Both the position numbers and the translations under genes were made by a program. A DNA stretch of 64,000 nucleotides, from assembly GCF_000260715.1 (NCBI RefSeq), contig NC_017834.1, positions 1,612,001 to 1,676,000 of the forward strand. Direction: 5' to 3'. This document shows, in pieces, positions 14,415 to 57,562 of the stretch. The DNA comes from Bifidobacterium animalis subsp. animalis ATCC 25527. Lineage in GTDB: Bacteria > Actinomycetota > Actinomycetes > Actinomycetales > Bifidobacteriaceae. Position 1 is the first letter of the stretch. Each line of letters begins with the position of its first letter. The notes under the pieces were generated by a model. That model was not told where the DNA came from, did no database searches, and saw nothing but the letters and a program-made list of their open reading frames with translations.

Positions 14415-14420
14415 CCGAGC

Positions 14421-15301
14421 CTACCGTGTGTAGTTACGTAGTACCTTCAATGACTTCACGTAATTACTCAGCGTGAAGATCATCTTCCTATGCTCATCTT
14501 TCCTCATCATCTGGTCAGTGGAGACATCTTTCATATGATCGACCCGGATGTGCTTGTCGTACCACATCGTCAGGTGCCGGGCTCGGCATCGCATCAACAG
14601 AATGTCTTCCTCAAAATAGAGGAAGGTTCCGGAGTCGAATGCGCAGCTGAACTGCTTGACGAATGCCGGTGTGAATACAAAGCACGCACCATGGAGCTTG
14701 TAAGGTCTGCCGGTAATGGCATCTGCCGTGGCATTGACATGCTCAGGCAATGCATTGGCATCGGAATGCGTGAGTTTTGCCTTGAGTCGGGTCAGCGGGC
14801 CGAACAGGTGAAGGTGCAGCAGAAGCAGGATTACCTTGAAGCGCCATATCTGACGATCCACCTCCGCGCGGGTGTCGATGATCGAATAGATCGGGTTCGA
14901 GTGCGAACCGTTCTTGCCTGACACAATGTCCGGACCAATCACCCCCACATCAGGATGCGCCTTGAAATCCTCCTCGCACAGCTCCATGAAATCATCGCAG
15001 GCAATGGTGGCACGTTGTTCATCGTGACGATGAAATCGCAATGTAGGCGATTCCGCGCATATTCATACCCGGTATTGTTACCGCCGGCGAACCCTTCATT
15101 CACTGCGTTATGCAGCAATGTCACGGTGGAATCAGCACCATACTTGCGTTGCAGCTCTTCGTAGCTACCATTGGCAGAGTTATTGTCCACCACCACTATG
15201 GCGGCTTGAGGGCAATGCGTTTTGATGGATTCGATGCAACCTGCCGTGGCATCTCCCGCAAGATAATGCAGCACCACGAATCCGAATTTCGCAGCAGTCA
15301 T
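14421..15301 (-). pseudogene. Glycosyltransferase family 2, frameshifted
   Basis: Two overlapping minus-strand frames together make one GT2 glycosyltransferase of about 292 residues. The first frame (from 15301) carries FGFVVLHYLAGDATAGCIES and VVVDNNSANGSYEEL and runs to FIVTMNN. The correct continuation, beginning ATIACDDFMELCEED, is in the next frame. Between forward positions 15012 and 15013 the coding strand reads AACAACGTGCCACC; adding one A (GAT GCC ACC) restores NNDATIACDD, including the acidic metal-binding position. A one-base deletion is therefore the simplest explanation. The C-terminal part (YEFEEDILLMRC-like, FEEDILLM) is otherwise intact. The gene is either inactive or the base is a sequencing error. 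It lies in the exopolysaccharide cluster between two other glycosyltransferases and the flippase. Confidence 0.85.
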
Positions 15302-15319
15302 GGATCTCCTTCAGTGGTA

Positions 15320-16333
15320 TCAGCCCTTGGCACGCAAGGCATGCACCAGAAGCGAACGCAACACGGCATTTCGCATCATCGTGTATTTGAATCGAATTGC
15401 AGGGCTCAATGCGGAAACATCAATCTGATCCAATCGTGGCCCCAATGCCTGTGCACGAGTCCGAGCCGCCTGCTTGGCGGATTGGGGGTCGGCGAGCATG
15501 ATGACCGCCTTCAGTTCCTGGAAATACAGGTTCACCTGCTCCTCGTTCCAAGCCCAAAGCAACGTCGCATCTCCATCGAGATGGTACTCATGCATGAGCC
15601 GGGCACGCTCGTCAATGGCCGGATGGTATAGACCCTTGGCATTGTTTTTGTAGGTGCGTGCACTCAATCCGCCCATACGGTAGTAATACCCTGCATAATC
15701 CACATACACAATCTCGTGTGCCAATTGGAAAGCCTGCATATTGAACAGATTGTCTTGCATGCGAGGCAATGCTGCGTCGAACTGCAGTCCATGCTCCTGC
15801 AGGAAAGCGTGCCTGTACAGTTTGCCCCACGGCACTCCAATGGCCGTGACGAATCCTTTGGGCTGTGCATATGAACCATCCATCAATTGACGGAACAGTT
15901 CCACCTTCTCGTCAGCGGCACGGGCCGTGAAGGATTCAGGGAAGAAATGCTGCCTGGCGGAATGCTGGTCATCGAATGCCACGCAGGTGCTCATGACGAT
16001 ATCCGGATTACGTTCGGTGGCTTTCAGCAGGGTTTCGAGATAGTCAGGAGCCACATAATCATCCGGATCGATGAAGCACACCCATTCGCCTTTGGCATGG
16101 GACAGTCCATTGTTACGGGCCACGGATACGCCGGAATTGTTCTGATCAATGAGCTGAACACGACCATCACGCTGCTCGTAGCCCTCGAGAATGGAGGCGG
16201 AGGCATCGGTGGAACCGTCATTGACGGCCAGCACCTCGAAATCCTCGAAACTCTGGTCGAGGAGCGAATCCATGCATGCGCCTACGTATTCTTCTTGGTT
16301 GTATACCGGAATGATTACCGAGATCTCAGGCAT
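15320..16333 (-). CDS. Glycosyltransferase family 2
   Basis: A 337-residue GT-A fold transferase: EISVIIPVYNQEEYVGACMDSLL at the N-terminus, VLAVNDGSTDASASIL, and the metal-binding DPDD in WVCFIDPDDYVAPDYLE. The C-terminal half is helical and variable, as usual for chain-elongating exopolysaccharide transferases. The donor and acceptor cannot be deduced. The ATG at 16333 is preceded by GAGGGG; the gene starts inside the last codons of the upstream Wzy-like gene (8-nt overlap), so the two are probably translated in concert. Confidence 0.88.
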   Translation of the reverse strand: MPEISVIIPVYNQEEYVGACMDSLLDQSFEDFEVLAVNDGSTDASASILEGYEQRDGRVQLIDQNNSGVSVARNNGLSHAKGEWVCFIDPDDYVAPDYLETLLKATERNPDIVMSTCVAFDDQHSARQHFFPESFTARAADEKVELFRQLMDGSYAQPKGFVTAIGVPWGKLYRHAFLQEHGLQFDAALPRMQDNLFNMQAFQLAHEIVYVDYAGYYYRMGGLSARTYKNNAKGLYHPAIDERARLMHEYHLDGDATLLWAWNEEQVNLYFQELKAVIMLADPQSAKQAARTRAQALGPRLDQIDVSALSPAIRFKYTMMRNAVLRSLLVHALRAKG

Positions 16334-44510: not shown

Positions 44511-44537
44511 CATCGGGCGCGGATCAGACGAATCTGC

Positions 44538-46503
44538 GGATTATCCCCTCTTGTACGGGGCAAACCGTGTTTGAGTGTGCGATTGCACCCTCCGATTACG
44601 GATCATCCCCGCCTGTGCGGGGCAAACGTATGAAGGCGGTGGCCACGTCGAAGACGCCCGGATCATCCCCGCCTGTGCGGGGCAAACAGCGACGACCCAC
44701 AGCCGACGGCCGTCCCCAACGGATCATCCCCGCCTGTGCGGGGCAAACCGGCTCGCACATCACATGCGGCCGCGAAAACCTGGATCATCCCCGCCTGTGC
44801 GGGGCAAACCTTTCGATGAGCGTGCCTTGGGCTGCTGTTGGCGGATCATCCCCGCCTGTGCGGGGCAAACTACGGCGATGTCGCGCTCAAGGACCTGCCC
44901 GCCGGATCATCCCCGCCTGTGCGGGGCAAACTACGGCGATGTCGCGCTCAAGGACCTGCCCGCCGGATCATCCCCGCCTGTGCGGGGCAAACCGATCGGT
45001 TTGAGTGCTGTTGGACGCTCGGTTCGGATCATCCCCGCCTGTGCGGGGCAAACTTGGACGGCACCGTTCGCGCTGGTCGCCCACCCGGATCATCCCCGCC
45101 TGTGCGGGGCAAACGGTTTGCCGTCCGCGGTGAGCATGCCGGACGCCGGATCATCCCCGCCTGTGCGGGGCAAACTTGACTCAGGTGCAGGCGTTGCGTG
45201 ATGCCGACGGATCATCCCCGCCTGTGCGGGGCAAACCAACTCAACTACACGCCGGCAACCGAGCGTGCCGGATCATCCCCGCCTGTGCGGGGCAAACGAC
45301 TTCCCGCCCCTCGCTGCCTTACGCTTGTCCGGATCATCCCCGCCTGTGCGGGGCAAACTTGGAGAACGATAAAAACGGCGTCATGGATTACGGATCATCC
45401 CCGCCTGTGCGGGGCAAACGAGAGCATGGCGGACGCGATGGACGGCATGAGCGGATCATCCCCGCCTGTGCGGGGCAAACATTCCAGCGGCCACGCAAGG
45501 TAATATGCGTGACGGATCATCCCCGCCTGTGCGGGGCAAACGTGACAGTGCGCGCATTCGTGTCTGACGCTGCCGGATCATCCCCGCCTGTGCGGGGCAA
45601 ACCATGTATCGCATACCTGAGTACCCCACGCTCAACGGATCATCCCCGCCTGTGCGGGGCAAACTATCCGTTGGCTGAGTTGATGAAACACTCGGTCGGA
45701 TCATCCCCGCCTGTGCGGGGCAAACGCACGCGCTTGCACGTCCAGCCAATTCTCGCTCGGATCATCCCCGCCTGTGCGGGGCAAACCTCTTCGCGCCCTC
45801 TAGCTCGTAGCGAATACCCGGATCATCCCCGCCTGTGCGGGGCAAACTTCTTGGCGACCTCGCCGAATCCGGCAGGACCCTTGTTGCCGCACACCTCACG
45901 CCAGGTCTTCACCTTCGCCCCGGCCGGATCATCCCCGCCTGTGCGGGGCAAACCTCTTCTATTCGAGTTCCCATTACGGGTATTACGGATCATCCCCGCC
46001 TGTGCGGGGCAAACCAACGTTTTCTTGACCCGACTTGCGCTCTCACCGGATCATCCCCGCCTGTGCGGGGCAAACCTGTAGCGGCTAATACCGCGCTAGC
46101 GCCGGAACCGGATCATCCCCGCCTGTGCGGGGCAAACCTGCGCAGACCTCGTGCGCTCGACCCATATCTCGGATCATCCCCGCCTGTGCGGGGCAAACCG
46201 CCACCACAAGGGCGACGCATGGATACTGAACGGATCATCCCCGCCTGTGCGGGGCAAACCGACGCAGACCATCGAAGGCGCTATGGGCAACCGGATCATC
46301 CCCGCCTGTGCGGGGCAAACCAATCGACGACCCTGACTGTCCTCCCGCAGCGCGGATCATCCCCGCCTGTGCGGGGCAAACGCAGCGGCGTAGGCAAGGG
46401 ACTCGGCCTTGCACGGATCATCCCCGCCTGTGCGGGGCAAACAATTCGTGTATGACGGGTCGCCGTGGATACAGCGGATCATCCCCGCCTGTGCGGGGCA
46501 AAC
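44538..46503 (-). CRISPR. Type I-E CRISPR array, 32 repeats, 31 spacers
   Basis: 28-bp repeats (29 with the conserved C in front) occur every 61 bp; in the crRNA direction the repeat is GTTTGCCCCGCACAGG followed by CGGGGATGATCCG, with a CCCCGC/GCGGGG stem. Spacers are 32-34 nt except one of 78 nt (45848-45925). The repeat at 44538 is degenerate (ATTATCCCCTCTTGTACGG core) and marks the old, trailer end. The cas2-proximal end at 46503 is therefore the leader end, matching minus-strand transcription. Spacers at 44871-44903 and 44932-44964 are identical. All but the terminal repeat are essentially perfect, which suggests an active or recently active array. Confidence 0.98.
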
Positions 46504-46598: not shown

Positions 46599-46964
46599 TC
46601 ATCGACCGAATCGTCGATACCGCGACGCATTGCTCCATCCCGTGCACCGTCCGCGCGAAGGTCTTCTGGCGGAATCATTCTCCGAAGATTGCTCGGCCGG
46701 CCGCAGGATAAGCTCCAATCCATCATAATCTATCGGTTGCCATGTCTGCCCATAAGTCTTGAATTCAAGCCCCTGCTCAGTATTCGAGGAATATACCATC
46801 ACGGCTTTCCCTTCCTCCAGATTCTCAAGGACCTGCACCCACAAGAGTTCTCGCACCCTAGCGGAGACCTTGCCCACATACACCCCCGCAGAGATTTCCA
46901 GCAGCCATCTAGTGAGATGTCCACGTAATTTCGGAGGTGCGGAAGTCAGCACAATCACTATCAT
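46599..46964 (-). CDS. cas2: CRISPR-associated endonuclease Cas2, type I-E
   Basis: A 121-residue Cas2e: MIVIVLTSAPPKLRGHLTRW, then LEISAGVYVGKVSARVRELLW, and SSNTEQGLEFKTYGQTWQPI. It forms the Cas1-Cas2 integrase that inserts spacers. The ordinary Cas2e ends near LELILRPAE; here about 30 residues follow (QSSENDSARRPSRGRCTGWS...), rich in Ser and Arg and reading toward the leader. The tail may be a real extension or a run-on after loss of a stop. GAGG precedes the ATG. It lies between cas1 and the array. Confidence 0.93.
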   Translation of the reverse strand: MIVIVLTSAPPKLRGHLTRWLLEISAGVYVGKVSARVRELLWVQVLENLEEGKAVMVYSSNTEQGLEFKTYGQTWQPIDYDGLELILRPAEQSSENDSARRPSRGRCTGWSNASRYRRFGR

Positions 46965-46998
46965 GGTGCCTCACAAATGTAGTTCCCGAATCCCGCGA

Positions 46999-47967
46999 TC
47001 AGAATTCTTCCCCATCAACGACTCCTTTCCCGAAATTATGCCCCGCGTTGGAATATCCCGCTGCTCCGGCCCAAATCTGCGTAGTAATATCTTCCACTTG
47101 AACGTCCTCCTCGGCAACTTCGGAATCTGGAAGGAGGAGGTATCGCACATCACGGACGCATCGCTGCAGGAATTTTCCATCCTTCATGCGATCCCGCAAT
47201 GCCTTCCGAGCCGCCGCGGAAACATCTTCCACTCCCAAAGCCGCAAGATCGAATGCCAACGGAATTGTGATATCCGCCTTGTAAAGATCAGCAATGTCAT
47301 ATACGAAGCTACGCTCATTCCGAGCATGCACGAATCCCAATCCCGGAGAGCAGCCGAGGGAAACAATTACCGCATGCACCACCCCATACAACGACGTGTT
47401 CACTGCGGATAATGCTTGATTGATGAGATCAGCTTCATCGAAATCGGTCATTTTGTATGATCGACCACTCCACTGGACTCCCGTTCTCCTAGATTCACGC
47501 TCATATGCTCTGCGAACTCGCGTTCCCTCCTTTCCCAATAGTTGCTGCATGGTGAGCCCTGCCGTTTCCTCATTGGGGAAACGCATCTCGTACATTTTCC
47601 GAGCGACTTTCAATCGACTTCGCTCTGATGACACGAGCTTCGCCTGTTCCTCAAGCAGATGGGTGGAACTGGCGAGCGAGGCACCATGACAGTAATATCT
47701 GACGCCTCGCTCCCCTACCCAAATGCATGTAGAGCGAGATTCCGCAAGCAGACTGATGGCGGCGTGTGTCACGTTGCTACCTGGGCCGAGCATCAACACG
47801 CTTAGGGTAGCGGCAGGAACATGCACTGTTCCTCGCTGGTCTGAAATGGTTATCGCATTATCCGACCGATTCACAATGCAATGCTCGGCATACAGGAACG
47901 TCAGCCTATCCTGCACCCGCACCAACGATTTCAATTCTGGTGGTTTTACTCCGGGAATCTTGCTCAT
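46999..47967 (-). CDS. cas1: CRISPR-associated integrase Cas1, type I-E
   Basis: A 322-residue Cas1e. The N-terminal beta domain has RLTFLYAEHCIVNRSDNAIT. The catalytic part has SLYGVVHAVIVSLGCSPGLGFVHARNERSFVYDIADLYK, with His and Asp in HARNERSFVYDIAD as metal ligands, and an upstream Glu expected around DEADLINQ. Together with Cas2 it adds new spacers at the leader end. AGGAGAGG precedes the ATG. It lies 23 bp after cas6e in the operon. Confidence 0.96.
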   Translation of the reverse strand: MSKIPGVKPPELKSLVRVQDRLTFLYAEHCIVNRSDNAITISDQRGTVHVPAATLSVLMLGPGSNVTHAAISLLAESRSTCIWVGERGVRYYCHGASLASSTHLLEEQAKLVSSERSRLKVARKMYEMRFPNEETAGLTMQQLLGKEGTRVRRAYERESRRTGVQWSGRSYKMTDFDEADLINQALSAVNTSLYGVVHAVIVSLGCSPGLGFVHARNERSFVYDIADLYKADITIPLAFDLAALGVEDVSAAARKALRDRMKDGKFLQRCVRDVRYLLLPDSEVAEEDVQVEDITTQIWAGAAGYSNAGHNFGKGVVDGEEF

Positions 47968-47990
47968 ACACCTCTCCTATTACCAAGGAC

Positions 47991-48665
47991 TCATTCCAAT
48001 GATGCCCGGGTAACCAGCGGAGCCAAGGTCATCAGTCCACACCCATAGGCTTTTGCCGGCCCTATACCCTCGACCAAAGCTCTGCGAAGCCGATCAGGAT
48101 CATCAATGGCAAGGATTCCCTCGAAAGTCGCTCTGACCAAGGTCACACGCGAGCTCTTCCGGCGGAATGACACCAATCCGGAATCACGAATACGCAGTTC
48201 CGGCTGCTCCAGTCGATTGATGGTCATATGACAGCCGGCTTTACGCAGTTTGTCGAATATCCACTCCTCTTGATCATCGACTTTCACCAGTGGCGTTCGA
48301 CTCCCTCGGGTCACAAATCCTTCAGAAGGCAACGTTTTGGTTGGATTGGCGGTGAGCCGGAACACCCGTTCCTGGCCACATTCAAGTCGATCGAGGAAGG
48401 GTTCATACTCGCAGCTGGAAATCGCCTTGGGCTCCACGCCCAGCTCCTCATTCAACACGGTCGCGTCGGGCGCCACGGCAGAGACAATATAGAGACGGAA
48501 CATCTTTCCATTGCCATCCGTGTCCAATCGCCACAATGTCCGTTCCTTGGTGGAGCCGCCATCTGTTGCACGAGCGACTACCGCATGGATTCGTTCCAAA
48601 GAACCGAATATGCGCAGCGCTCGCCGATCTTTTGGATTCACCAGCACTCTGGAGAACATGGCCAT
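47991..48665 (-). CDS. cas6e: Cas6e crRNA endoribonuclease
   Basis: A 224-residue Cas6e/CasE: MAMFSRVLVNPKDRRALRIFGSLERIHAVVA, with a His at about position 27 (IHAVV) as the likely catalytic residue, and the glycine-rich loop VEGIGPAKAYGCGLMTLAPL at the C-terminus. It cuts the pre-crRNA at the base of the repeat hairpin and stays bound to the 3' handle. The start has AGGAGG upstream within the last codons of cas5e. The hairpins of the short CRISPR-like unit at 56282-56370 would be possible extra substrates. Confidence 0.94.
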   Translation of the reverse strand: MAMFSRVLVNPKDRRALRIFGSLERIHAVVARATDGGSTKERTLWRLDTDGNGKMFRLYIVSAVAPDATVLNEELGVEPKAISSCEYEPFLDRLECGQERVFRLTANPTKTLPSEGFVTRGSRTPLVKVDDQEEWIFDKLRKAGCHMTINRLEQPELRIRDSGLVSFRRKSSRVTLVRATFEGILAIDDPDRLRRALVEGIGPAKAYGCGLMTLAPLVTRASLE

Positions 48666-48667
48666 GG

Positions 48668-49441
48668 TTATTCCACCTCCTGTCGTACAGCATCGAAGAA
48701 ATCGGCATCGTTCAGGTTGGAGAGCTCACCAGACCCTGTAGGCACAGCGGCATCTCCTCTACTGCTATTGGCGGACAGGCCGGGAGTGGCCTCATACGAA
48801 CGCCGATATCGTCGGAGTTTCCATTGCCTTCTCTCGGGATTGAAATTCACAGGCTCGTCGGCCAGTGTCTCCAAGACGCCGCTTTCTGTAGACTCCTCCA
48901 CCGTTGGCTCAATTCTCATTTCAAGGAAAGGGCGCCCATCTTGAGTATTTAGCACTCTGCGCCGATACCAGTCAGCAGCCTTCCAGGGCGCATTGGACAA
49001 TGCGGATTCTAGGGAACCCTCGGTGATCCATGTCTCGATTGGTCCAGCAGGTGGACATGAGCGACGTCCGAGGAATAGCTGATAGAACGGAGTATGCAAG
49101 GCTTGGGCGTAGTTCTCCAACGAGTCCCTATCCCCTTCCACTCCTACAACGAACACGGCGTCCTGAATGTAGAAGCGAGTAGACAGCGGGAGCATTTTCC
49201 CGTGTTCGTCCATCGCAGTGTGGTAGTCGGACAGCACGGTTCCAGGCTGGTCAGCACGAACACCGAATCGCAATCCTCTGAATCGCGACAGACTCTCAGT
49301 GCGTCCTACGCCCAAGGCGGCCGCGATCATGCCAATCACCCCGCTCTTGGTGGGCATCATCTCCGTCTCACGCCGGGTGAAACGGCTTGAGGAACCCCAT
49401 GATTGCATGGGGCCTTTGAGCACCATCATCAAAACAGACAT
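48668..49441 (-). CDS. cas5e: Cascade subunit Cas5e
   Basis: A 257-residue Cas5e/CasD. It begins SVLMMVLKGPMQSWGSSSRF and TRRETEMMPTKSGVIGMIAA, the characteristic N-terminal motif, and has FLGRRSCPPAGPIE in the thumb region. It caps the 5' handle of the crRNA and contacts the first Cas7. The start at 49441 is chosen because GGGGAG sits 5 nt upstream in the last codons of cas7e; the GTG two codons earlier overlaps that site. Confidence 0.94.
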   Translation of the reverse strand: MSVLMMVLKGPMQSWGSSSRFTRRETEMMPTKSGVIGMIAAALGVGRTESLSRFRGLRFGVRADQPGTVLSDYHTAMDEHGKMLPLSTRFYIQDAVFVVGVEGDRDSLENYAQALHTPFYQLFLGRRSCPPAGPIETWITEGSLESALSNAPWKAADWYRRRVLNTQDGRPFLEMRIEPTVEESTESGVLETLADEPVNFNPERRQWKLRRYRRSYEATPGLSANSSRGDAAVPTGSGELSNLNDADFFDAVRQEVE

Positions 49442-49443
49442 GG

Positions 49444-50622
49444 TCACTCCCCAGCCAGACGCTGTTCCACGATATGTTCCACATCATCGATGAGCGCCTT
49501 GAGATTGGTCGGTTCAGCCAATAGATTCGCGGCCTTGGTATTGTCACCGATGCGAATCACCCACGTGGCAATTGGAGCCGTCCCGTAGGCTTCGTCGATT
49601 TGCTGCTCACGTTCGACCAAGGCTTCCGTCGCATGCTCCACGTAATCCGGACGCACCGGTCGCTCGAATGCACCGACCAAGTTCACCGCCTGAGTGTCAC
49701 GAATGTTGACGATGACAAGTTCGGGCAGTGTACCCTGCGCGAACGAGTTAATCTTGCCTTGCGGCATGCTGGTCACGAATGCACGGATGAATGTGCCCAC
49801 TGCTTTGGCCGTCGTCTTCGGATCGCCGAGCGTGTCGTTTAGACGATTGGCGTCCACGTTGGCATAGCGGTAGAACGTCGCTGCATTGAATTCAATCTCG
49901 CCAAGCATGGCGGCACCTTGATCGCCGCCCTCGTTCTCATCGTGGAAATCATTCTTGGCGTCATCGACCGCCGTATAGTAATCGGACTCGGTGTCCACCG
50001 CTTGAACACTGATGGCATGTGCGACCTGCGCGGCGGCATCCACGTTCAGATCCGTGTCGTCCGCAACCATTCGGCCAAACAGGGCCACATCGATGGCCTT
50101 GTCATCTTGCACGATCTTCTTGATATCCTTCTTATGCGCCTTGATTGCCGCTTCAAATGCCTTCTGGTCTCCGGCTTCCCTCCAAGCATTGACGGCGAAT
50201 TGGGCAAGACGATCATACTGCCTATTGCCAAGGAACAGCAAGTATGTGGATTGCCTCGCTTTCTCTTCGTCCTCATTGTTGGCGTTCTTCTTTTTACGGG
50301 GCGCCGTGAGCTTGATCCCCGCACCCGTTTCCAATACGGTTTCCGCCATCTTCTCAGAGTCATCGGAGAGCGAGGCATCCAGATTGTCGATGGCGGTGCG
50401 CAACTTGTCCACAACATGCTTGGTGCGCACTCCCAAGTCCTGCTCGCCCAGCAATTCACGGAACATCAATCGGGTCGGACGCTTCCATGCCTGACTCGAT
50501 ACCCGAGCTCGAGTGACACCGCCATATTCGACTGTCTTCGGGCTGCCGGTATCGTCGCGGTTCAGATTCGCGGATGCTGTGGTTTCGAGAGCATGGATTT
50601 CCGCAATCGTTCGGTTGGTCAT
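49444..50622 (-). CDS. cas7e: Cascade backbone Cas7e
   Basis: A 392-residue Cas7e/CasC: EIHALETTASANLNRDDTGSPKTVEYGG, RARVSSQAWKRPTRLMFREL, and GEIEFNAATFYRYANVD in the middle. Six copies form the crRNA-binding spine of Cascade, with every sixth spacer base flipped out. The ATG at 50622 is chosen for AAAGGA upstream (about 7 nt); the frame opens 17 codons earlier, overlapping cse2. Its stop lies inside the Shine-Dalgarno region of cas5e. Confidence 0.95.
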   Translation of the reverse strand: MTNRTIAEIHALETTASANLNRDDTGSPKTVEYGGVTRARVSSQAWKRPTRLMFRELLGEQDLGVRTKHVVDKLRTAIDNLDASLSDDSEKMAETVLETGAGIKLTAPRKKKNANNEDEEKARQSTYLLFLGNRQYDRLAQFAVNAWREAGDQKAFEAAIKAHKKDIKKIVQDDKAIDVALFGRMVADDTDLNVDAAAQVAHAISVQAVDTESDYYTAVDDAKNDFHDENEGGDQGAAMLGEIEFNAATFYRYANVDANRLNDTLGDPKTTAKAVGTFIRAFVTSMPQGKINSFAQGTLPELVIVNIRDTQAVNLVGAFERPVRPDYVEHATEALVEREQQIDEAYGTAPIATWVIRIGDNTKAANLLAEPTNLKALIDDVEHIVEQRLAGE

Positions 50623-50669
50623 TTTAGATCCTTTCATTGTCTTGTGTTTTGTTGTGTTGGTGGATGTGG

Positions 50670-51338
50670 TCATTCGTCACTGGCTGCATTCATTGCGGCA
50701 CGGTAACCGCTCTGGTAATCACGCCCCCATTGCAGCCTCACCAGATTCGCGGTTTCGCGGCCTCGGCGCAGCCTGACAAGATCCTGGGCAAGCAGTCCAT
50801 AGTTGAGGGGAATTTCCTCTCGTTTCAGCAGTTTGATCAAACGCCGAGCATGATGGGACATTTCCGCCCACCCATTGGCCGTTTGCATCTTGTCAAAGGT
50901 TGAGCGAATCCCTTTTTCGTTGAAATTGCCATAGGCAATCATTCCCACGGCTCGTCCCAACGACATATTGGAATCCGTCTGCATGGATTGCTCACGATGG
51001 GATTGTTGCTGCACCGCGAATAAAGTCATGGCGAGATGGGCTGCCATTTCTTCGGCTGTAGGGGCGCAGTCATGTGGCACCCTATAGGGATATATGGCGG
51101 CATCATCCTCGTCCGGCACGGTCCATACGAAAATATCCGGATCCGCCCCGACCTCATGTCCGGCCGCATGCGCGAGTTGCGCAATGGCGGCAACCGCTTT
51201 TGAATCGTTGCCTATGTAGCCTCCAGCGGTTGCTTTGTCCGAGCCGCCGCCGGTTGCCAGCATGGCAGCTTTGCGCGCAACCCATTGCCCAAACGGCGAT
51301 AGGCGGATTTTCCCCTCGTCGCTGTTTTCGTTCATCAT
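50670..51338 (-). CDS. cse2: Cascade small subunit Cse2
   Basis: A 222-residue, mostly helical Cse2/CasB protein: LSPFGQWVARKAAMLATGGG, TLFAVQQQSHREQSMQTDSN-type middle and REEIPLNYGLLAQDLVRLR. Two copies form the belly of Cascade and stabilise the R-loop. The ATG at 51338 has AAGGAGA 7 nt upstream, partly within the last codons of cas8e. Confidence 0.9.
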   Translation of the reverse strand: MMNENSDEGKIRLSPFGQWVARKAAMLATGGGSDKATAGGYIGNDSKAVAAIAQLAHAAGHEVGADPDIFVWTVPDEDDAAIYPYRVPHDCAPTAEEMAAHLAMTLFAVQQQSHREQSMQTDSNMSLGRAVGMIAYGNFNEKGIRSTFDKMQTANGWAEMSHHARRLIKLLKREEIPLNYGLLAQDLVRLRRGRETANLVRLQWGRDYQSGYRAAMNAASDE

Positions 51339-51340
51339 GG

Positions 51341-53026
51341 TCACTCTCCTTCCTTGGGAATGATGGTATTGATTTTTGCCCTGAACCAGATTTGTGCGAC
51401 TGCAGCGTCATAATGCCTGGACGTGGTCTCGCCTGTCTTCGGATTCCTCGAACTGATTTCCCTGCCCACAATCGCCTGTGGTGACGCTTGCTGGGACAGA
51501 TCGTCGCACAGTCGATACAGCAAAGACTTTGCGGTCTTTTTCCACCGGGCGATATCTTCGTCAATCGTCTCCTCGGTGACCGTCGCTATCCACTGTCTGA
51601 AGGCATAATCAAATTGCGAATATGCTAACTCGTGGGCGTGTGCCCGGGGCGTCTCCTCCGGCCTTCCCGCCGCTTTGGCGAGGTTACCGGCGAATCCAGC
51701 CAGTTCTCTAATCCCTGCGTCGACGATGTTCACGGCTTTTGCAATCGCATCGCCGACCTGAGGGTTCTTGGAGGTCAGCACGCTGAGGTTGAGATCCAGT
51801 TTGTCGTCGACAATGGTGTCGATCACCGCCTCCTGATTGCCATATTCCACCCCATAAGCATGAATGCGGATGGGCATGTCCAGCGATGTTCCCAACTGGA
51901 GTTGCTGTAGCCAATTGAACGTAAGAGGCCGGAGTCGTTCCGGAACGCTGGCCACATCATAGGCGTCAGCCACGGTAATGGTGGGGAGGTTTCGCCACAA
52001 GGCTCTGGAGGGGTCATGCTTGCGGGGCATGTACACCACAGGAATCTTGAGCTTCTTCTCCTGTGCATCGCTGCGACGCCACGAAGTCATGGGTTCGTAG
52101 TTCTCGGCATTTTGTGGCTTAAGTCGGTCGCCGTTGCAAATCAGCACGCCATTCACCGTCTCGCCATCATGAGATAGGAGAATTCGTCTGGACTGCCAGG
52201 TGTACAACGTCGCGGGTCCATGGAAGTAGCGAGGCACACCCGTGCTTTCCGCCGGCTGATCATAACCGTCCTGGGCGCACTGCGTAAGTGGCGGGCGTTC
52301 CCATATGGGAGTATCGGTGGTCCAATCTACATCCATATGCCCCGCACTAATCGCGTGCCTACTCACATAATTGAGCATGAGCGTGGTCCACAAGTCATTG
52401 CCCTCACAGATATAACCGCCAAGATGCCCGCTCCATGCGACTCCGATTGGGTACCCTTTTCCGCCTTTCACTCGTGGATCGCCCACGGCACCGGATTTGA
52501 TGCCCGATGGGTCGAACGCTTGCACAGTGACGAGCCAGCGAGCAGCCTCCGCCGCCGACATCGTTTGAAGGGACTCACCACCTCGAATGGTGAACAGGCG
52601 ATCTCCAGCGGGGACGTCGAGAATAATGCGTTCCAAGCCGGAAACCTCATGCTTCGCGGTATGCAGTCCCGCGACCTGATAGAACGGCTGTTTCGCATCG
52701 AACAGGTCGAAACGATCATGATAGGCATCGCAATACTGTTCAATGCGATGCCATACATCCTCATCTTCCGGCCCTCGTTCATACAACCCCCACCAGGCAT
52801 CTTCATTGAAATCATTCCCCAAAGAGCCATAGACAATCGCCTCCAGAAGTCGAACCAACGCAAATTGCTGTATGGTGTTGTCGCCGGTAAGACACTCGAT
52901 GTCCTTCGCACGCCTCAACGTCTCTTTGATGGACAGCTCGAGAACGGCGCCATTCTGTTTCATGATGACCTGCAGCCATTGCCTATCCATCAAATTGAAT
53001 GACGTGTTGTCATTTCCTATTGACAT
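51341..53026 (-). CDS. cas8e: Cascade large subunit Cas8e (Cse1)
   Basis: A 561-residue Cse1/CasA: SFNLMDRQWLQVIMKQNGAV, ECLTGDNTIQQFALVRLLEAI and RFDLFDAKQPFYQVAGL, followed by the C-terminal four-helix bundle. It recognises the PAM and recruits Cas3. The start overlaps the last 17 bases of cas3. Its exact PAM preference cannot be read from sequence, but the spacing of the self-match described for 56282-56410 fits an AAG PAM. Confidence 0.93.
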   Translation of the reverse strand: MSIGNDNTSFNLMDRQWLQVIMKQNGAVLELSIKETLRRAKDIECLTGDNTIQQFALVRLLEAIVYGSLGNDFNEDAWWGLYERGPEDEDVWHRIEQYCDAYHDRFDLFDAKQPFYQVAGLHTAKHEVSGLERIILDVPAGDRLFTIRGGESLQTMSAAEAARWLVTVQAFDPSGIKSGAVGDPRVKGGKGYPIGVAWSGHLGGYICEGNDLWTTLMLNYVSRHAISAGHMDVDWTTDTPIWERPPLTQCAQDGYDQPAESTGVPRYFHGPATLYTWQSRRILLSHDGETVNGVLICNGDRLKPQNAENYEPMTSWRRSDAQEKKLKIPVVYMPRKHDPSRALWRNLPTITVADAYDVASVPERLRPLTFNWLQQLQLGTSLDMPIRIHAYGVEYGNQEAVIDTIVDDKLDLNLSVLTSKNPQVGDAIAKAVNIVDAGIRELAGFAGNLAKAAGRPEETPRAHAHELAYSQFDYAFRQWIATVTEETIDEDIARWKKTAKSLLYRLCDDLSQQASPQAIVGREISSRNPKTGETTSRHYDAAVAQIWFRAKINTIIPKEGE

Positions 53027-56000
53027 GGGCTTCCCATCCTTTCTGTGGTGAGTAACGAATCCTCAATTCTCGGCATATCTTGTTCCCTTTCCTGTCACTG
53101 GTCTTCACTTGGAGCGTCGTCTCTCCATTGTGGTCAAGAATCAATGGAAGTTGCCCGCTCAACAGTCGCTCCTGCTGCATGAGGACATGCCATGTCGCAG
53201 GTGTCGCAAATTCAATTGCATTGATCACGGCGTCCAGATTCAAATAGGACACAGAACTACTTCCAAGTGAGATGGTGCATGCCAGCACCGCTTGCACTTG
53301 GTCAGGGGTTGGTGCGTCAAAACCTTGTGGCAACCTGCGCGGCGCGGCAGTCGACACCCATTCCGGAATCATCAATGTTCCATCCGCATCCTGTTGCAGC
53401 ACTATGACTTCGAAGGAATCGTCACCATCGCGTACGGCCGCCCTGGCCTGTCTCGACATCCCGTCTCCAGCGCCTTCCACATCGGATATGCATGTGGTAA
53501 GCCAGTCGTCCAACGCAAATGGATGGCGCGTGTTGCGCTGCGGTGCCATCAAGCTGAATACACGTGCTTTACTACGACTGTCTGCCAAATGTTCCATAAG
53601 TGCTGCATGTGCTTCAATCTCCACCTCGCGCCATTCCGCTCGGCACCGGAGGGTGCCGTCCTCATAGACGGACTGCACGAGCCTTGAAATATCACCCGGA
53701 AGATTCACAGTACTGGCTCGATCAGGCTCGATGCCGAGCATCGCCAATGTGCGCAGCAGGAAGAATGGTTGGTACACACGAGTGATCCCTGCGGAAAAGC
53801 CAGGAGCGGCATCCCTGTTCCATGTGACCCCGGTGATGTACATCCGCGCTTGCCGGAGTGGCTCAGGTCGTTCGGATTCCCCTTCACCCCGACGATGACG
53901 GTGCAAGCGCCCCGCACGTTGCAGGATGAGATCCGCAGGAGCGACATCGGTGATCATCATGTCGAAATCGACATCGAGTGACTGCTCCACCACTTGTGTT
54001 GCCACAACAATCCCTTGCCGCATCTCCGATGTACTGGATTTACCGAATCGGAGGAGAAGATTCTGATCGATGTCCGACCTATCACATGCCAGAAAACGGG
54101 CATGGTCCAACAGCACATCCATGTGGCTTCCGAATTCCTTCTGGAGGAGATCGAATGTGTGCTGTGCTCGAGATACCGTGTTCCTAATGACCACCGCGCA
54201 ACCGCTTTCGTGCAGTTGCTTGCGCAATAATGCAACCAATGCTTCATCGGAATCATCGATAAGGCTCATTTGCACGTCTATCGCACGCCCGGAAGCAGCA
54301 GGACTGACTGATCGGGGAATGCCATCGCCCTCAACCAAGCTGATGAGAGGGTATCGCAGATCCAATGGTTTTGCGGCCGAAGGCTTCTCTCCGCTTCCAG
54401 CAGAAGGTTTAGTCAATTGGTTGGGCAACGAATGCCGCATAGGCAATGACCATGCACGTGATTTGTTCTGTGTCTGCTCCTTTTCGATTTGTGTGGCAAT
54501 CGCCTTATCGCCCTCCAAAGCCTGAAGGAAATGGGCACCAGCTTTATACGCCCGCAAGAAGGCCTCGCGCCTATCCTGCGGAAGTGTGGCACTGAGCATG
54601 ATGACCGGTACCTCATATGCCCCAAGCCACGAAAGTGCATTCTCCATATACACGTTCATATAAGCGGTGTTGGAATGGACCTCATCGAGAATAACCACTT
54701 TCCCACTAAGCGCCAAGTGACGAAGCACCACATGCTTGCTCTGAAGAGCGGCCATAAGCACCTGATCGATTGTGCCAATCACAAAGTCGGAAAGATTTCC
54801 ACGTTTGGGGCCGGTCAGCCAAGAATTGACCACCGCCTGCACGGCACCTCGTTCGCGGGGCGAATCTTGCGAATATTCGTCATCCACATAACCAAATGAT
54901 GTATGCGAAAAGATCTTATCCCGAATTGCCGGATCATCAAACCATTCCTCGCGCAGCCGCACATATTCCGGATTCTGATCATGCTTGGCCTGCGCCAGAA
55001 ACACGGAACCCAATTCCATGCCGTGTTGGGCGGGAAGATGTCCAATCCACTGGAGAGCGCGATGAAACATGGCATTCACCGTTGCTCGTGTGGGCAGCGC
55101 ATAATAAATGCCTCCACAATGGAATCGCGAAGCCAGAATTTCCGCAGCGGTCAACGCCGCCTCAGTCTTCCCCTCGCCCATATTCGCTTCGATGATCATA
55201 AGCCCCGGCTTTTCCATCGTCGAGGCGAGATCAACCGCTTCACGTTGCATCGGCCTCAGTCGGGCACCAGAAAGGTCGAACCGTGAAGCAAACAAATCGT
55301 CGGGAGATAGACCCGATGTATCAGCTTCCCATGGGCGCGGCAACGCCAGAAGCCGCCATGCTCGTCGAGAACGGCGATGCGAGTCATAACCAAGCTCGTC
55401 CGCTTCGCCATCATTCAGTGGGAAAAGTCTGGAGTCGCTTGCAATCCAGTCCGATTCAATCACCATGCCCGTAAGCAATGCTTGGGAACGGCTACGAATT
55501 GGCCGGTTGTTCAATCGGTCAATCGTCGACTGAAAATCGGTCACACCCGCAGCCCAATCGACGAGCTCCATCCTGACCGCCTCCCAATCCGCGTCACCGA
55601 CATAGGTCGTCGCATCATAGCTGTTGAGCAGCCGCTTCTTCTCATCGGTAATGCAGGTTCCATGATGCCCGGCAACGATTGACGCCAATCCATGCGCCAA
55701 CGACCCTACCTGAGTGTTCAGCTTCTGTCGTGAGGCCCATCGTAGTAATGCCTTATACCCCACCAGCTCGTGCCGATATTGCGAGCGCTCCTTGGTATGG
55801 GCAATACCGCTAGGAATGTGCAGACCACTTTCGCGAACGCGATCTGCAAAATAATCATTCTGCACTTCAAAGGCTGGCGACGCCTTGCCTACATCATGCA
55901 CCATCGCAAGGAAGGTAAGGACGCTTACGGCATTCGTCTCGCCACCCAGATCCTCACACAACAATTTTTTATCCTTCTCGGGAATGGCATATTTCCACAA

Positions 56001-56144
56001 CAGTTCCGATATGGCGGCCGTATCCCTCATATGCTGCCACAGCCGCAGATAGCGGTGGTCATTGAGATCTGCCGAGAATGCCGTTTTCGCCCAAACGCAA
56101 AGCGCACGTGCCGATAAATCAGGTCGACCGTAACAGTCTCTCAT
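53010..56144 (-). CDS. cas3: CRISPR-associated helicase/nuclease Cas3
   Basis: A 1044-residue Cas3 with the HD nuclease first (FLAMVHDVGKASPAFEVQ, then VGYKALLRW and SIVAGHHGTCI), and a superfamily 2 helicase after it. Walker A is MIIEANMGEGKTEAALT, DEVH is in VVILDEVHSNTAYMN, and motif VI is in LQRAGRLHRHRR. It degrades target DNA after recruitment by Cascade. The ATG at 56144 is chosen because AAGGGGGT lies about 5 nt upstream; the frame opens with a TTG 14 codons earlier. It is the first gene of the cas operon; a promoter is predicted at 56237-56265. Confidence 0.95.
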   Translation of the reverse strand: MRDCYGRPDLSARALCVWAKTAFSADLNDHRYLRLWQHMRDTAAISELLWKYAIPEKDKKLLCEDLGGETNAVSVLTFLAMVHDVGKASPAFEVQNDYFADRVRESGLHIPSGIAHTKERSQYRHELVGYKALLRWASRQKLNTQVGSLAHGLASIVAGHHGTCITDEKKRLLNSYDATTYVGDADWEAVRMELVDWAAGVTDFQSTIDRLNNRPIRSRSQALLTGMVIESDWIASDSRLFPLNDGEADELGYDSHRRSRRAWRLLALPRPWEADTSGLSPDDLFASRFDLSGARLRPMQREAVDLASTMEKPGLMIIEANMGEGKTEAALTAAEILASRFHCGGIYYALPTRATVNAMFHRALQWIGHLPAQHGMELGSVFLAQAKHDQNPEYVRLREEWFDDPAIRDKIFSHTSFGYVDDEYSQDSPRERGAVQAVVNSWLTGPKRGNLSDFVIGTIDQVLMAALQSKHVVLRHLALSGKVVILDEVHSNTAYMNVYMENALSWLGAYEVPVIMLSATLPQDRREAFLRAYKAGAHFLQALEGDKAIATQIEKEQTQNKSRAWSLPMRHSLPNQLTKPSAGSGEKPSAAKPLDLRYPLISLVEGDGIPRSVSPAASGRAIDVQMSLIDDSDEALVALLRKQLHESGCAVVIRNTVSRAQHTFDLLQKEFGSHMDVLLDHARFLACDRSDIDQNLLLRFGKSSTSEMRQGIVVATQVVEQSLDVDFDMMITDVAPADLILQRAGRLHRHRRGEGESERPEPLRQARMYITGVTWNRDAAPGFSAGITRVYQPFFLLRTLAMLGIEPDRASTVNLPGDISRLVQSVYEDGTLRCRAEWREVEIEAHAALMEHLADSRSKARVFSLMAPQRNTRHPFALDDWLTTCISDVEGAGDGMSRQARAAVRDGDDSFEVIVLQQDADGTLMIPEWVSTAAPRRLPQGFDAPTPDQVQAVLACTISLGSSSVSYLNLDAVINAIEFATPATWHVLMQQERLLSGQLPLILDHNGETTLQVKTSDRKGNKICRELRIRYSPQKGWEAHVNRK

Positions 56145-56236
56145 GCACACCCCCTTCGCGATGTCCAACGCCATTCCAAGTACCAAAACTTCGATCTAGA
56201 ATGGTTGTAGGTCATTCAGTGATTCAAATTGCTTTC

Positions 56237-56265
56237 ACATTACTACCTTTCCAAATGAAAAGCAA
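56237..56265 (-). promoter_or_regulatory. Predicted promoter of the cas operon
   Basis: On the minus strand TTGCTT (-35, 56260-56265) and TAATGT (-10, 56237-56242) are separated by 17 bp. Transcription would start near 56230 and leave about 85 nt of leader before cas3. The -10 lies inside the partial protospacer matched by the adjacent CRISPR-like unit. Confidence 0.55.
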
Positions 56266-56281
56266 ATCTATTCCCCTCATC

Positions 56282-56410
56282 TCCTTACCCCCGCTCATGC
56301 GGGGCAAATTACCGCTCTCAATATCGAGAGCACATCACTACCGGATCATTCTCGCTCATGCAAGACAAACCCAGACCGAGTTCGATCACCCGCTGATGTG
56401 CGGATGAAAT
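56282..56410 (-). ncRNA. CRISPR-like mini-unit upstream of cas3, possible cas-regulating RNA (CreR type)
   Basis: Two degenerate repeats (56282-56309 and 56343-56370, or from 56342 with the extra C) flank a spacer-like segment of exactly 33 nt, in the array orientation. Read on the minus strand, the 5' repeat is GTTTGTCTTGCATGAG followed by CGAGAATGATCCG. It keeps the handle ATGATCCG and its stem arms TCTTGC/GCGAGA still pair at all six positions (one G-U), although they differ from CCCCGC/GCGGGG. The 3' repeat keeps the normal stem and has the same loop ATGA, but lacks a handle. A third weaker hairpin repeat lies at 56382-56410. The segment starts GTAGTGATGTG and matches 10 of 11 positions in the cas3 promoter next to an AAG PAM. 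CreR-type RNAs, known in other type I systems, guide Cascade to repress cas genes. Confidence 0.65.
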
Positions 56411-56440
56411 GATGGGAATGGTTCTTACCGGCGAAATTCA

Positions 56441-56460
56441 TATTACCAATACTGGTAATA
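56441..56460. promoter_or_regulatory. 20-bp operator-like palindrome
   Basis: TATTACCA and TGGTAATA are perfect 8-bp arms separated by ATAC, 30 bp upstream of the mini-unit on the minus strand. A minus-strand -10-like TAATAT (19 bp from TTACAC) overlaps it. It looks like a dimer-binding site controlling the mini-unit promoter; the regulator is unknown. Confidence 0.5.
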
Positions 56461-56516
56461 TCATGTGTAATCGATTCAGCAGACTCCGCAGATTTGCGAC
56501 AGGCTCCGATAGCTCC

Positions 56517-56566
56517 TTGCGTAAAAAGAGACACCATTAGCGGCTTACTCGTCTCCAATTACGCAA
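56517..56566. repeat. TGCGTAA hairpin element, copy 1
   Basis: Inverted repeat TTGCGTAA-AAA-GAGAC at 56517-56532 with GTCTC-CAA-TTACGCAA at 56551-56566; three mismatches in 16 bp. It is located just after the thrB stop and probably acts as its terminator. Three related elements lie at 59064, 59186 and 60908. Confidence 0.65.
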
Positions 56567-56578
56567 AAGAGGCTGGAG

Positions 56579-57562
56579 CTACAGCCGCGCCACCTGCACA
56601 CCCTGCGTGTCCACGTTGAGGTGGAGCACACGCCAGTGGCCGGATGCGAGCTGGGCGGCGGCAATCTGGTTCAGGTCGTCCGAGGCGTCGCCGTTATGCA
56701 GCACGCAGACGCACGGGCCGGCACCCGATACGGCGGCCGCATACCCGTGTTCGCGCAGTAGGTCGATGAGTTCGGCAGACGGCTTCATGAGCGGCGCGCG
56801 ATAGCTCTGGTGGAGCTTGTCTTGCGTGGCGGTGAACAGCAGTTCGTTCGGGTCCTGCTCCCCTGCCAACGCGGACGGATTCATGGCTCCGATCAGCAAT
56901 CCCATGCGAGACACGTTGAACACGGCGTCCGCGAACGGCACCGTGTTCAGCAATGCGGCGCGGGCCTGCGCGGTGGAGAGTTCGTAATCCGGAACGAAAA
57001 TTGAGGCGTGCACACCGGCGTCGACGAGGTAGTTCACCGAGCGGAAGCCGGTGTTCACCACCTCGCCCTGCACGATCTCGCTTTGCCCATCTTCGGTCCA
57101 CGAGACGGTCATGCCGCCGTACACCGCGGGCGCCACGTTGTCGGGGTGTCCTTCGAGATCCGCCGCGTATTGGAAGATGAGATCACGGTCGAGCTCTCCT
57201 TCGTGCGAGAACGCGTAGGCGGCGGAGATGCCGGCCACGATCGCCTCGGCGGACGAGCCCATGCCGCGCGCCTGCGGAATGTTGTTGTGCGCCTCCATGA
57301 TGAACCCGCATTTGCTCAGACCAAAGCGCGAACATGCGCGGCGGAACGTGGAGACCACCAGGTGAGACTCGTCGCGCGGCAGCGTGTTCTCGCCTTCGCC
57401 GGTGATGAGAATCTGTGCCGCCATGTTGAGCGGATCGGAACTGAGCGTGAACTCGAGCTCGTCATGGTAATCCAAGGCAAGTCCCACAGTGTCGAAACCG
57501 GAGCCGAGATTGGCGCTGGTCGCCGGCACGCGAACGTGGACTTTACGAGTCACCGGATCCAT
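56579..57562 (-). CDS. thrB: Homoserine kinase
   Basis: A 327-residue GHMP kinase: VHVRVPATSANLGSGFDTVGLALDY at the N-terminus, the ATP loop NIPQARGMGSSAEAIVAGIS, and late AAVSGAGPCVCVLH. It phosphorylates homoserine in threonine synthesis. AGGAAG precedes the ATG. It lies 62 bp after hom on the same strand, in the order argS-lysA-hom-thrB that is common in actinobacteria. A threonine synthase is not in the window. Confidence 0.95.
   Translation of the reverse strand: MDPVTRKVHVRVPATSANLGSGFDTVGLALDYHDELEFTLSSDPLNMAAQILITGEGENTLPRDESHLVVSTFRRACSRFGLSKCGFIMEAHNNIPQARGMGSSAEAIVAGISAAYAFSHEGELDRDLIFQYAADLEGHPDNVAPAVYGGMTVSWTEDGQSEIVQGEVVNTGFRSVNYLVDAGVHASIFVPDYELSTAQARAALLNTVPFADAVFNVSRMGLLIGAMNPSALAGEQDPNELLFTATQDKLHQSYRAPLMKPSAELIDLLREHGYAAAVSGAGPCVCVLHNGDASDDLNQIAAAQLASGHWRVLHLNVDTQGVQVARL

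What the first reader, a model, noticed from the sequence alone, without database searches (positions are those of the whole stretch)
56229..56410. CRISPR-like mini-unit upstream of cas3 whose spacer start matches the cas promoter: candidate CreR-type autorepressor
Seen directly: two degenerate repeats 33 nt apart in the array orientation. Repeat stems are conserved: the 5' repeat changed both arms (TCTTGC/GCGAGA instead of CCCCGC/GCGGGG) yet still pairs at all six positions with one G-U, and both repeats share the loop ATGA, unlike the array. The 5' handle ATGATCCG is intact; the 3' repeat lacks a handle, which it would not need. The spacer-like segment (first base 56341) reads GTAGTGATGTG. 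The cas3 promoter, on the same strand, reads GTAGTAATGTG from 56246: 10 of 11 match, the mismatch is position 6, and the three bases before it are 5'-AAG. Known: Cascade of type I-E ignores every sixth spacer base, AAG is a type I-E PAM in E. coli, and short seed matches allow binding without cleavage; CreR RNAs repress cas genes this way in other systems. The match covers the predicted -10 (TAATGT). Inference: this unit makes a guide by which Cascade represses its own operon. The rest of the segment is not complementary to the promoter.
Basis: partly seen in the sequence, partly recalled or inferred. Interest (0 to 1): 0.95.

Follow-up and report, generated by a model that had tools for sequence, protein, structure and literature searches.

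The report
CRISPR guide silencing its own genes
Beside its CRISPR defence genes this Bifidobacterium carries a tiny two-repeat CRISPR unit whose guide matches the region just upstream of those same genes, and in most related loci examined guide and target have changed in step, so it likely makes an RNA by which the defence complex would turn its own genes down.

Summary
A minus-strand mini-CRISPR (R1 56370-56342, 32-nt spacer, R2 56309-56281) lies upstream of a complete type I-E cas operon. Its spacer matches the cas3 upstream region at positions 1-5 and 7-11, next to AAG, the only such site in the 1.93-Mb genome.

Comparison indicates that the pairing is selected. A mini-unit with a target was found in 26 of 35 genus loci. 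In one search, 24 of 26 guides score at least 9/10 in their own promoter regions, against 3 of 810 comparisons with unrelated loci and 3 of 1,040 shuffled guides. Guides differ between lineages and targets follow. The match rate falls to chance at positions 6 and 12, as expected for Cascade, and the PAMs AAG and AAC are those predicted for Bifidobacterium I-E in print.

CreR RNAs of type I-E are already in print, so this is a new member of a known kind. RNA, binding and repression were not tested. Side finding: in six relatives a Fic gene stands under such a targeted promoter region.

The parts
56342..56370 (-). R1, degenerate 5' repeat: stem-loop TCTTGC-ATGA-GCGAGA and intact handle ATGATCCG
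   Evidence: 21 of 29 identical to the array repeat, 6 of 6 stem pairs kept, two of them by changes on both sides
56310..56341 (-). 32-nt spacer; seed positions 1-11 are 56341-56331; positions 11-28 hold an internal hairpin with core GCTCTC/GAGAGC (56331-56314)
56281..56309 (-). R2, 3' repeat: perfect stem CCCCGC-ATGA-GCGGGG, no handle
56289..56349 (-). predicted mature guide RNA, 61 nt (8-nt handle, 32-nt spacer, 21-nt R2 stem-loop)
   Evidence: inferred from the known Cas6e cut at the base of the stem (recalled); not tested
56247..56249 (-). PAM 5'-AAG of the target
   Evidence: Bifidobacterium I-E PAM predicted as AAC or GAAG in PMC7284854 (passage)
56236..56246 (-). target seed GTAGTaATGTG, 10 of 11, mismatch at position 6
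56215..56246 (-). 32-nt stretch that Cascade would cover; only scattered matches beyond position 11
   Evidence: match string; extent inferred
56237..56242 (-). predicted -10 TAATGT of the cas promoter (candidate -35 TTGCTT 56265-56260), inside the target seed
   Evidence: weak (6 of 12; other candidates score 7)
53010..56144 (-). cas3 (ATG at 56144 with GAAGGGGG upstream), first gene of the operon
46599..53026 (-). cas8e, cse2, cas7, cas5, cas6e, cas1e, cas2e: complete type I-E set, overlapping or at most 34 nt apart
   Evidence: NCBIfam, all seven above a curated cut-off
44537..46503 (-). CRISPR array, 32 repeats at the threshold used

Best explanation
The segment is a two-repeat mini-CRISPR unit whose spacer seed matches the upstream region of its own type I-E cas operon, and it likely makes a crRNA-like guide (a CreR RNA) with which Cascade would bind that promoter and repress the operon without cutting it.
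For: Own locus: one genome-wide AAG plus 10/10 site; 0 of 32 array spacers above 7/10. Genus: one search picks units by repeat architecture without a target filter; of its 49 rows 33 were array repeats or array antisense, 2 lay inside coding sequence (L051, L058), and 14 are stand-alone mini-units beside the cas genes; 14 of 14 have a target of at least 9/10 next to AAN in a cas promoter region (14 of 16 if the two coding rows are kept; thresholds were set after searches had shown some of them). All 26 units: own-region score at least 9/10 in 24; against other loci 25 of 832, of which 22 lie between near-identical loci, so 3 of 810; shuffled guides 3 of 1,040. Position profile over 21 guide lineages: 1-5 95-100%, 6 24%, 7-11 76-100%, 12 29%, 18 36%, the 6-nt Cascade period; positions 6, 12 and 18 were not used for selection. 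In six alignable loci 8 of 20 columns vary in guide and target together and match 6 of 6. PAMs AAN in 12 of 12 representatives found without PAM filter, agreeing with the published AAC/GAAG. Unit and target can lie about 3 kb apart and on either strand, so the link acts in trans.
Against: No RNA or expression data. In E. coli, seed-only Cascade binding at off-target sites changed no gene within 1 kb of a bound site (PMC5904413 section 9), so seed binding alone need not repress; repression here would rest on the site lying on the promoter and on 10 rather than 5 seed pairs. The predicted cas3 promoter is weak (6 of 12) and two other candidates score 7 of 12, in which case the seed would not cover the -10; the best unit promoter (TACACA, 18 nt, TAATAT) scores 8 of 12, and one search found neither at its threshold of 9. 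No unit with target in 9 of 35 loci (L032, L037, L041, L043, L044, L045, L054, L056, L065; four of these lack the cas3 start, the operon head or a cas3 match) nor in B. tissieri L066 and B. callimiconis L067. Twelve of the 26 pairs were found by repeat similarity, with the target in view or by eye. L036 reaches only 8/10, and R1 of L033 and L036 does not pair in the fixed stem register. The direction (repression) is inferred.
Confidence: 0.85

Rival explanations
1. Relic of an old CRISPR array end; the seed match to the promoter is chance.
For: The repeats are degenerate, and degenerate terminal repeats are common (recalled).
Against: Guide and target follow each other over 21 lineages while cross-locus and shuffled controls do not.
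Confidence: 0.03
2. The two GTAGTNATGTG copies are direct-repeat operators of an ordinary protein regulator.
For: Two copies of one 11-mer near one promoter.
Against: The word differs between lineages; one copy follows a repeat handle and the other an AAN; in L046-L052, L055 and L057 the copies are on opposite strands and in L058-L064 about 3 kb apart; positions 6 and 12 are free.
Confidence: 0.02
3. CreTA or CrePA antitoxin: the guide represses a toxin and cas control is secondary.
For: Same anatomy in print; in six relatives a Fic gene follows the targeted region.
Against: In the window no gene is seen between the target and cas3. The genome's own Fic relative is elsewhere (contig 52,903-54,099; target at 1,668,236) and no unit with target was found before it.
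Confidence: 0.05
4. Cascade is guided to the promoter for another purpose, such as activation or protection of the locus from adaptation.
For: The sequence does not show the direction of regulation; E. coli seed-only binding did not change nearby expression.
Against: The seed lies over the predicted -10 here, and in 4 of 9 group-2 loci the PAM overlaps an exact TTGACA, where bound Cascade would be expected to block polymerase.
Confidence: 0.05

Closest known systems
CreR (cas-regulating RNA) of type I-B, I-E and V-A systems
   Same: Mini-CRISPR near the cas genes, partial complementarity to the cas promoter, effector of the same system as repressor (PMC13131331 passage; PMC12737573 passages; PMC12948488 passage)
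   Different: No expression test here. The primary paper is not held, so its I-E examples could not be compared. This spacer has 32 nt, whereas 12 of the 14 stand-alone units have 20-21 nt
CreTA / CrePA (CRISPR-repressed RNA or protein toxin)
   Same: Same guide anatomy and promoter targeting (PMC9458426 passages; PMC12737573 section 3.3)
   Different: No toxin gene seen under the target in the window; in relatives the gene under the target can be Fic, whereas the review names KilA-N as typical of CreP
tracr-L of Streptococcus pyogenes Cas9
   Same: Natural guide with an 11-nt match next to a PAM represses its own cas promoter (PMC8616872 passage)
   Different: Class 2, tracrRNA-derived, no mini-CRISPR

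Membership tests
CreR | Mini-CRISPR with degenerate repeats in or beside the cas locus | tested here: met
CreR | Spacer with limited, PAM-proximal complementarity to the promoter of its own cas genes | tested here: met
   that the site is the promoter is predicted only
CreR | Complementarity kept in relatives | tested here: met
   26 of 35 loci
CreR | Complete cognate effector present (type I-E) | tested here: met
CreR | RNA made and processed by Cas6 | not testable with these tools
   stems kept, no RNA data
CreR | Effector-dependent repression of cas genes | not testable with these tools
   none
CreTA / CrePA | A toxin gene under the target promoter | tested here: not met
   window: only cas3 follows. 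Six relatives have Fic there, toxicity unknown

The most novel reading that the evidence does not exclude
In Bifidobacterium type I-E loci Cascade uses such guides to hold down a Fic-domain gene as well as its own cas operon: a CRISPR-repressed Fic module, either at the head of the cas operon (L033, L035, L036, L039) or alone behind cas2 with a guide unit of its own (L038). Inactivating Cascade, for instance by an anti-CRISPR, would release Fic together with Cas proteins. The window's unit would then be what remains after Fic was lost.
Probability: 0.3. Interest if true: 0.8.

Novelty: new member of a known kind. Interest (0 to 1): 0.6.

Why it matters
If true, it shows RNA-guided self-control of a CRISPR system running through much of a genus used as probiotics. 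The 21 guide lineages act as a natural mutagenesis experiment that reads out Cascade's seed, its 6-nt period and its PAM. Anyone who repurposes endogenous I-E Cascade in Bifidobacterium for editing or CRISPRi should expect that added crRNAs may derepress the operon. The Fic link makes a Cascade-guarded Fic gene directly testable.

Tried and rejected
R0 (56410-56382), an apparent third repeat, was rejected: 18 of 29 similarity but 2 of 6 stem pairs. Rfam: 0 matches in 56100-56600 at E up to 5. The consensus scan found one promoter-like site, on the + strand, and none for cas3 or the unit. Array-relic, operator and toxin readings were tested by comparison and set aside (see rivals).

Named loci: one search gave 79; one search scanned 32 of them (26 not Bifidobacterium), each only to the 6 kb or less held upstream of cas8e. 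Outside the genus I accept a guide with an AAN target of at least 9/10 in 3 of 26: L081 (10/10, with R2), L076 (10/10, no R2 by the criteria), L102 (9/10, with R2). L106 has R1 and R2 but no such target. Other rows (for example in L080, L084, L108) had a match but no convincing repeats and were not followed.

Papers: no held text joins Bifidobacterium with CreR (one unrelated paper) or with a cas promoter and Cascade (0 papers). Fic with CrePA or Cascade: 12 papers, 10 listed, titles and abstract starts seen, none on this subject. The two primary papers on CreR and on CRISPR-derived regulatory RNAs were not available to me (the second by two ids; the first appears only in reference lists), so prior listing of these loci there cannot be excluded.

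Full report
WHAT IS THERE. The window lies in a 1,932,693-base genome whose genus mates are Bifidobacterium (unnamed; named through contigs of equal length). Its array repeat GTTTGCCCCGCACAGGCGGGGATGATCCG and 32 repeats are those given for B. animalis subsp. animalis ATCC 25527 in Table 1 of PMC4521832 (passage), so that is most likely the organism. On the minus strand runs a complete type I-E operon: cas3 (start ATG 56144), cas8e, cse2, cas7, cas5, cas6e, cas1e, cas2e, then the array. Upstream of cas3, same strand, is the mini-unit: R1 56370-56342, spacer 56341-56310, R2 56309-56281.

IS IT CHANCE? AAG plus the ten seed bases (positions 1-5 and 7-11) occurs once in the genome, upstream of cas3, and in 0 of 100 shuffles of the window. 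The 32 ordinary array spacers reach at most 7 of 10 there.

COMPARISON. Cas8e relatives occur in 33 of 112 genus genomes. I fetched 34 loci of 11-20 kb (weak or partial matches such as those in G009 and G055 were not fetched) and with the window examined 35. One search picks units by architecture without a target filter (two stem-loops 44-65 nt apart, the first with a handle): 49 rows, of which 33 were array repeats or array antisense (L045 12, L059 20, L038 one), 2 lay inside coding sequence (L051, L058) and 14 are stand-alone mini-units (window, L034, L035, L038, L039, L040, L042, L046, L048, L060-L064). All 14 have a target of at least 9/10 preceded by AAN in a cas promoter region; the two coding rows do not. 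The thresholds were set after searches had shown several of these. Twelve more were found by repeat similarity (L059), by a scan with the target in view (L047, L049, L050, L051, L055, L057, L058) or by eye and then scored (L033, L036, L052, L053). Total 26 of 35. Nine loci gave none: L032, L037, L041, L043, L044, L045, L054, L056, L065; of these L037 lacks the cas3 start, L041 begins inside the gene before cas3, and L054 and L065 have no cas3 match.

CONTROLS. Best seed score next to AAN in the own promoter regions: at least 9/10 in 24 of 26 (L036 has 8; L033 scored 5 because its region was set wrongly, and reaches 9/10 with PAM AAA). Same guides against the other loci with a cas3 match: at least 9/10 in 25 of 832, 22 of them within L060-L064 or L047/L049, so 3 of 810 otherwise. 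Shuffled guides: 3 of 1,040.

HOW THE PAIRING BEHAVES. Over 21 guide lineages (near-identical loci down-weighted, L033 left out) the match per guide position is 1-5: 95-100%; 6: 24%; 7-11: 76-100%; 12: 29%; 13-17: 50-76%; 18: 36%. In 12 representatives not found by a target scan, position 6 matches in 1 and position 12 in 1. Positions 1-5 and 7-11 were used to call targets, so their height is partly by selection; positions 6, 12 and 18 were not used. In six alignable loci (L047, L049, L050, L051, L055, L057) 8 of 20 columns vary in guide and target together with 6 of 6 matches, and position 6 matches in 3 of 6. In L060-L064 guide and target change together at position 4.

PAM. The 12 representatives, found without a PAM filter, have AAG 6, AAC 5, AAT 1. 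PMC7284854 predicts AAC or GAAG for Bifidobacterium I-E, AAC in B. pseudocatenulatum (passages). The two results are independent.

ARRANGEMENTS. Window and its closer relatives: unit and target on one strand before the first gene. Group 2 (L046-L052, L055, L057): unit in the cas3-cas8e gap, target on the other strand 74-123 nt before the aligned start of cas8e; in 4 of these 9 (L047, L051, L052, L057) the PAM overlaps an exact TTGACA and in L048 one begins 2 nt beyond it. L053: unit on the minus strand and target on the plus strand, both before cas3. L058-L064: unit upstream of cas3, target about 3 kb away before cas8e. Spacers are 20-21 nt in 12 of the 14 stand-alone units and 32-33 nt in the window and L039, a difference of two 6-nt Cascade steps.

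MECHANISM. E. coli Cascade binds in vivo with AAG and five seed pairs, without interference or primed adaptation (PMC5904413, passages). Applied here, seed-only pairing would let Cascade sit on the promoter without destroying the chromosome. The same paper found no change in RNA levels within 1 kb of such off-target sites (section 9); it also states that Cascade at a promoter can prevent initiation. So repression here is an inference that rests on the position of the site and on the longer seed. The internal hairpin of the spacer (56331-56314) could also discourage pairing beyond the seed; that is my inference.

KNOWN KIND. CreRs are in print for types I-B, I-E and V-A (PMC13131331, passage; PMC12737573, passages). 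The window's unit meets the features of that kind that I could test by sequence. Hence a new member of a known kind; RNA and repression are untested.

FIC. In L033, L035, L036 and L039 the first gene after the targeted region is a Fic/DOC protein (Pfam PF02661 for L035 and L039; relatives by tblastn for L033 and L036) that ends a few bases before cas3. In L038 a Fic gene behind cas2 has a unit of its own: R1, guide TTGTGATGTAT, R2, then AAA-TTGTGTTGTAT before the Fic start, 10 of 10 with position 6 mismatched. Of 23 genus genomes with this Fic relative at E up to 1e-60, six have a unit with target upstream: three by script (L145, L146, L150) and three by eye (L147, L148, L149), with scores 10, 9, 10, 9, 9 and 8 (other loci's regions 1 of 30 at 9 or more, shuffled guides 3 of 1,800). 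One of the six, L147/L168 (genome G067), keeps Fic and unit, yet no cas8e or cas5 was found in the genome and no cas gene beside it, which argues against Fic being lethal when Cascade is absent. Motifs HPFVDGNGR and SSSQIEN are recalled as those of self-inhibited Fic AMP-transferases.

Noticed in passing
L033, L035, L036, L039 (upstream of cas3): A Fic/DOC gene of about 410 aa is the first gene of the cas operon, after the guide's target.
   Followed up: partly
L038 oriented about 14,120-15,500 (L150): Second mini-unit behind cas2 whose guide matches the upstream region of a stand-alone Fic gene 10/10 with PAM AAA.
   Followed up: partly
L168 (G067:C2): Fic with a guide unit (9/10, AAG) in a genome where no cas8e or cas5 was found; DNA around it is similar to that of L033.
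   Followed up: partly
L032 upstream of cas3; L041 contig start: C-terminal remnant of a Fic gene (L032) and a Fic reading frame cut by the contig edge (L041) before cas3.
   Followed up: no
56443-56458: Palindrome-like TTACCAATACTGGTAA upstream of the unit, overlapping its best predicted -10 on the minus strand; looks like a protein operator.
   Followed up: no
several Fic loci without a guide unit, e.g. L160, L162, L164: Palindromes of the type TAGCTACAGATAAT...ATTATCTGTAGCTA before the Fic start, perhaps autoregulation.
   Followed up: no
   Followed up: no
L076, L081, L102: Similar guide-target pairs in an Actinomycetales MAG, a Nocardia and a Propionibacteriaceae MAG.
   Followed up: partly
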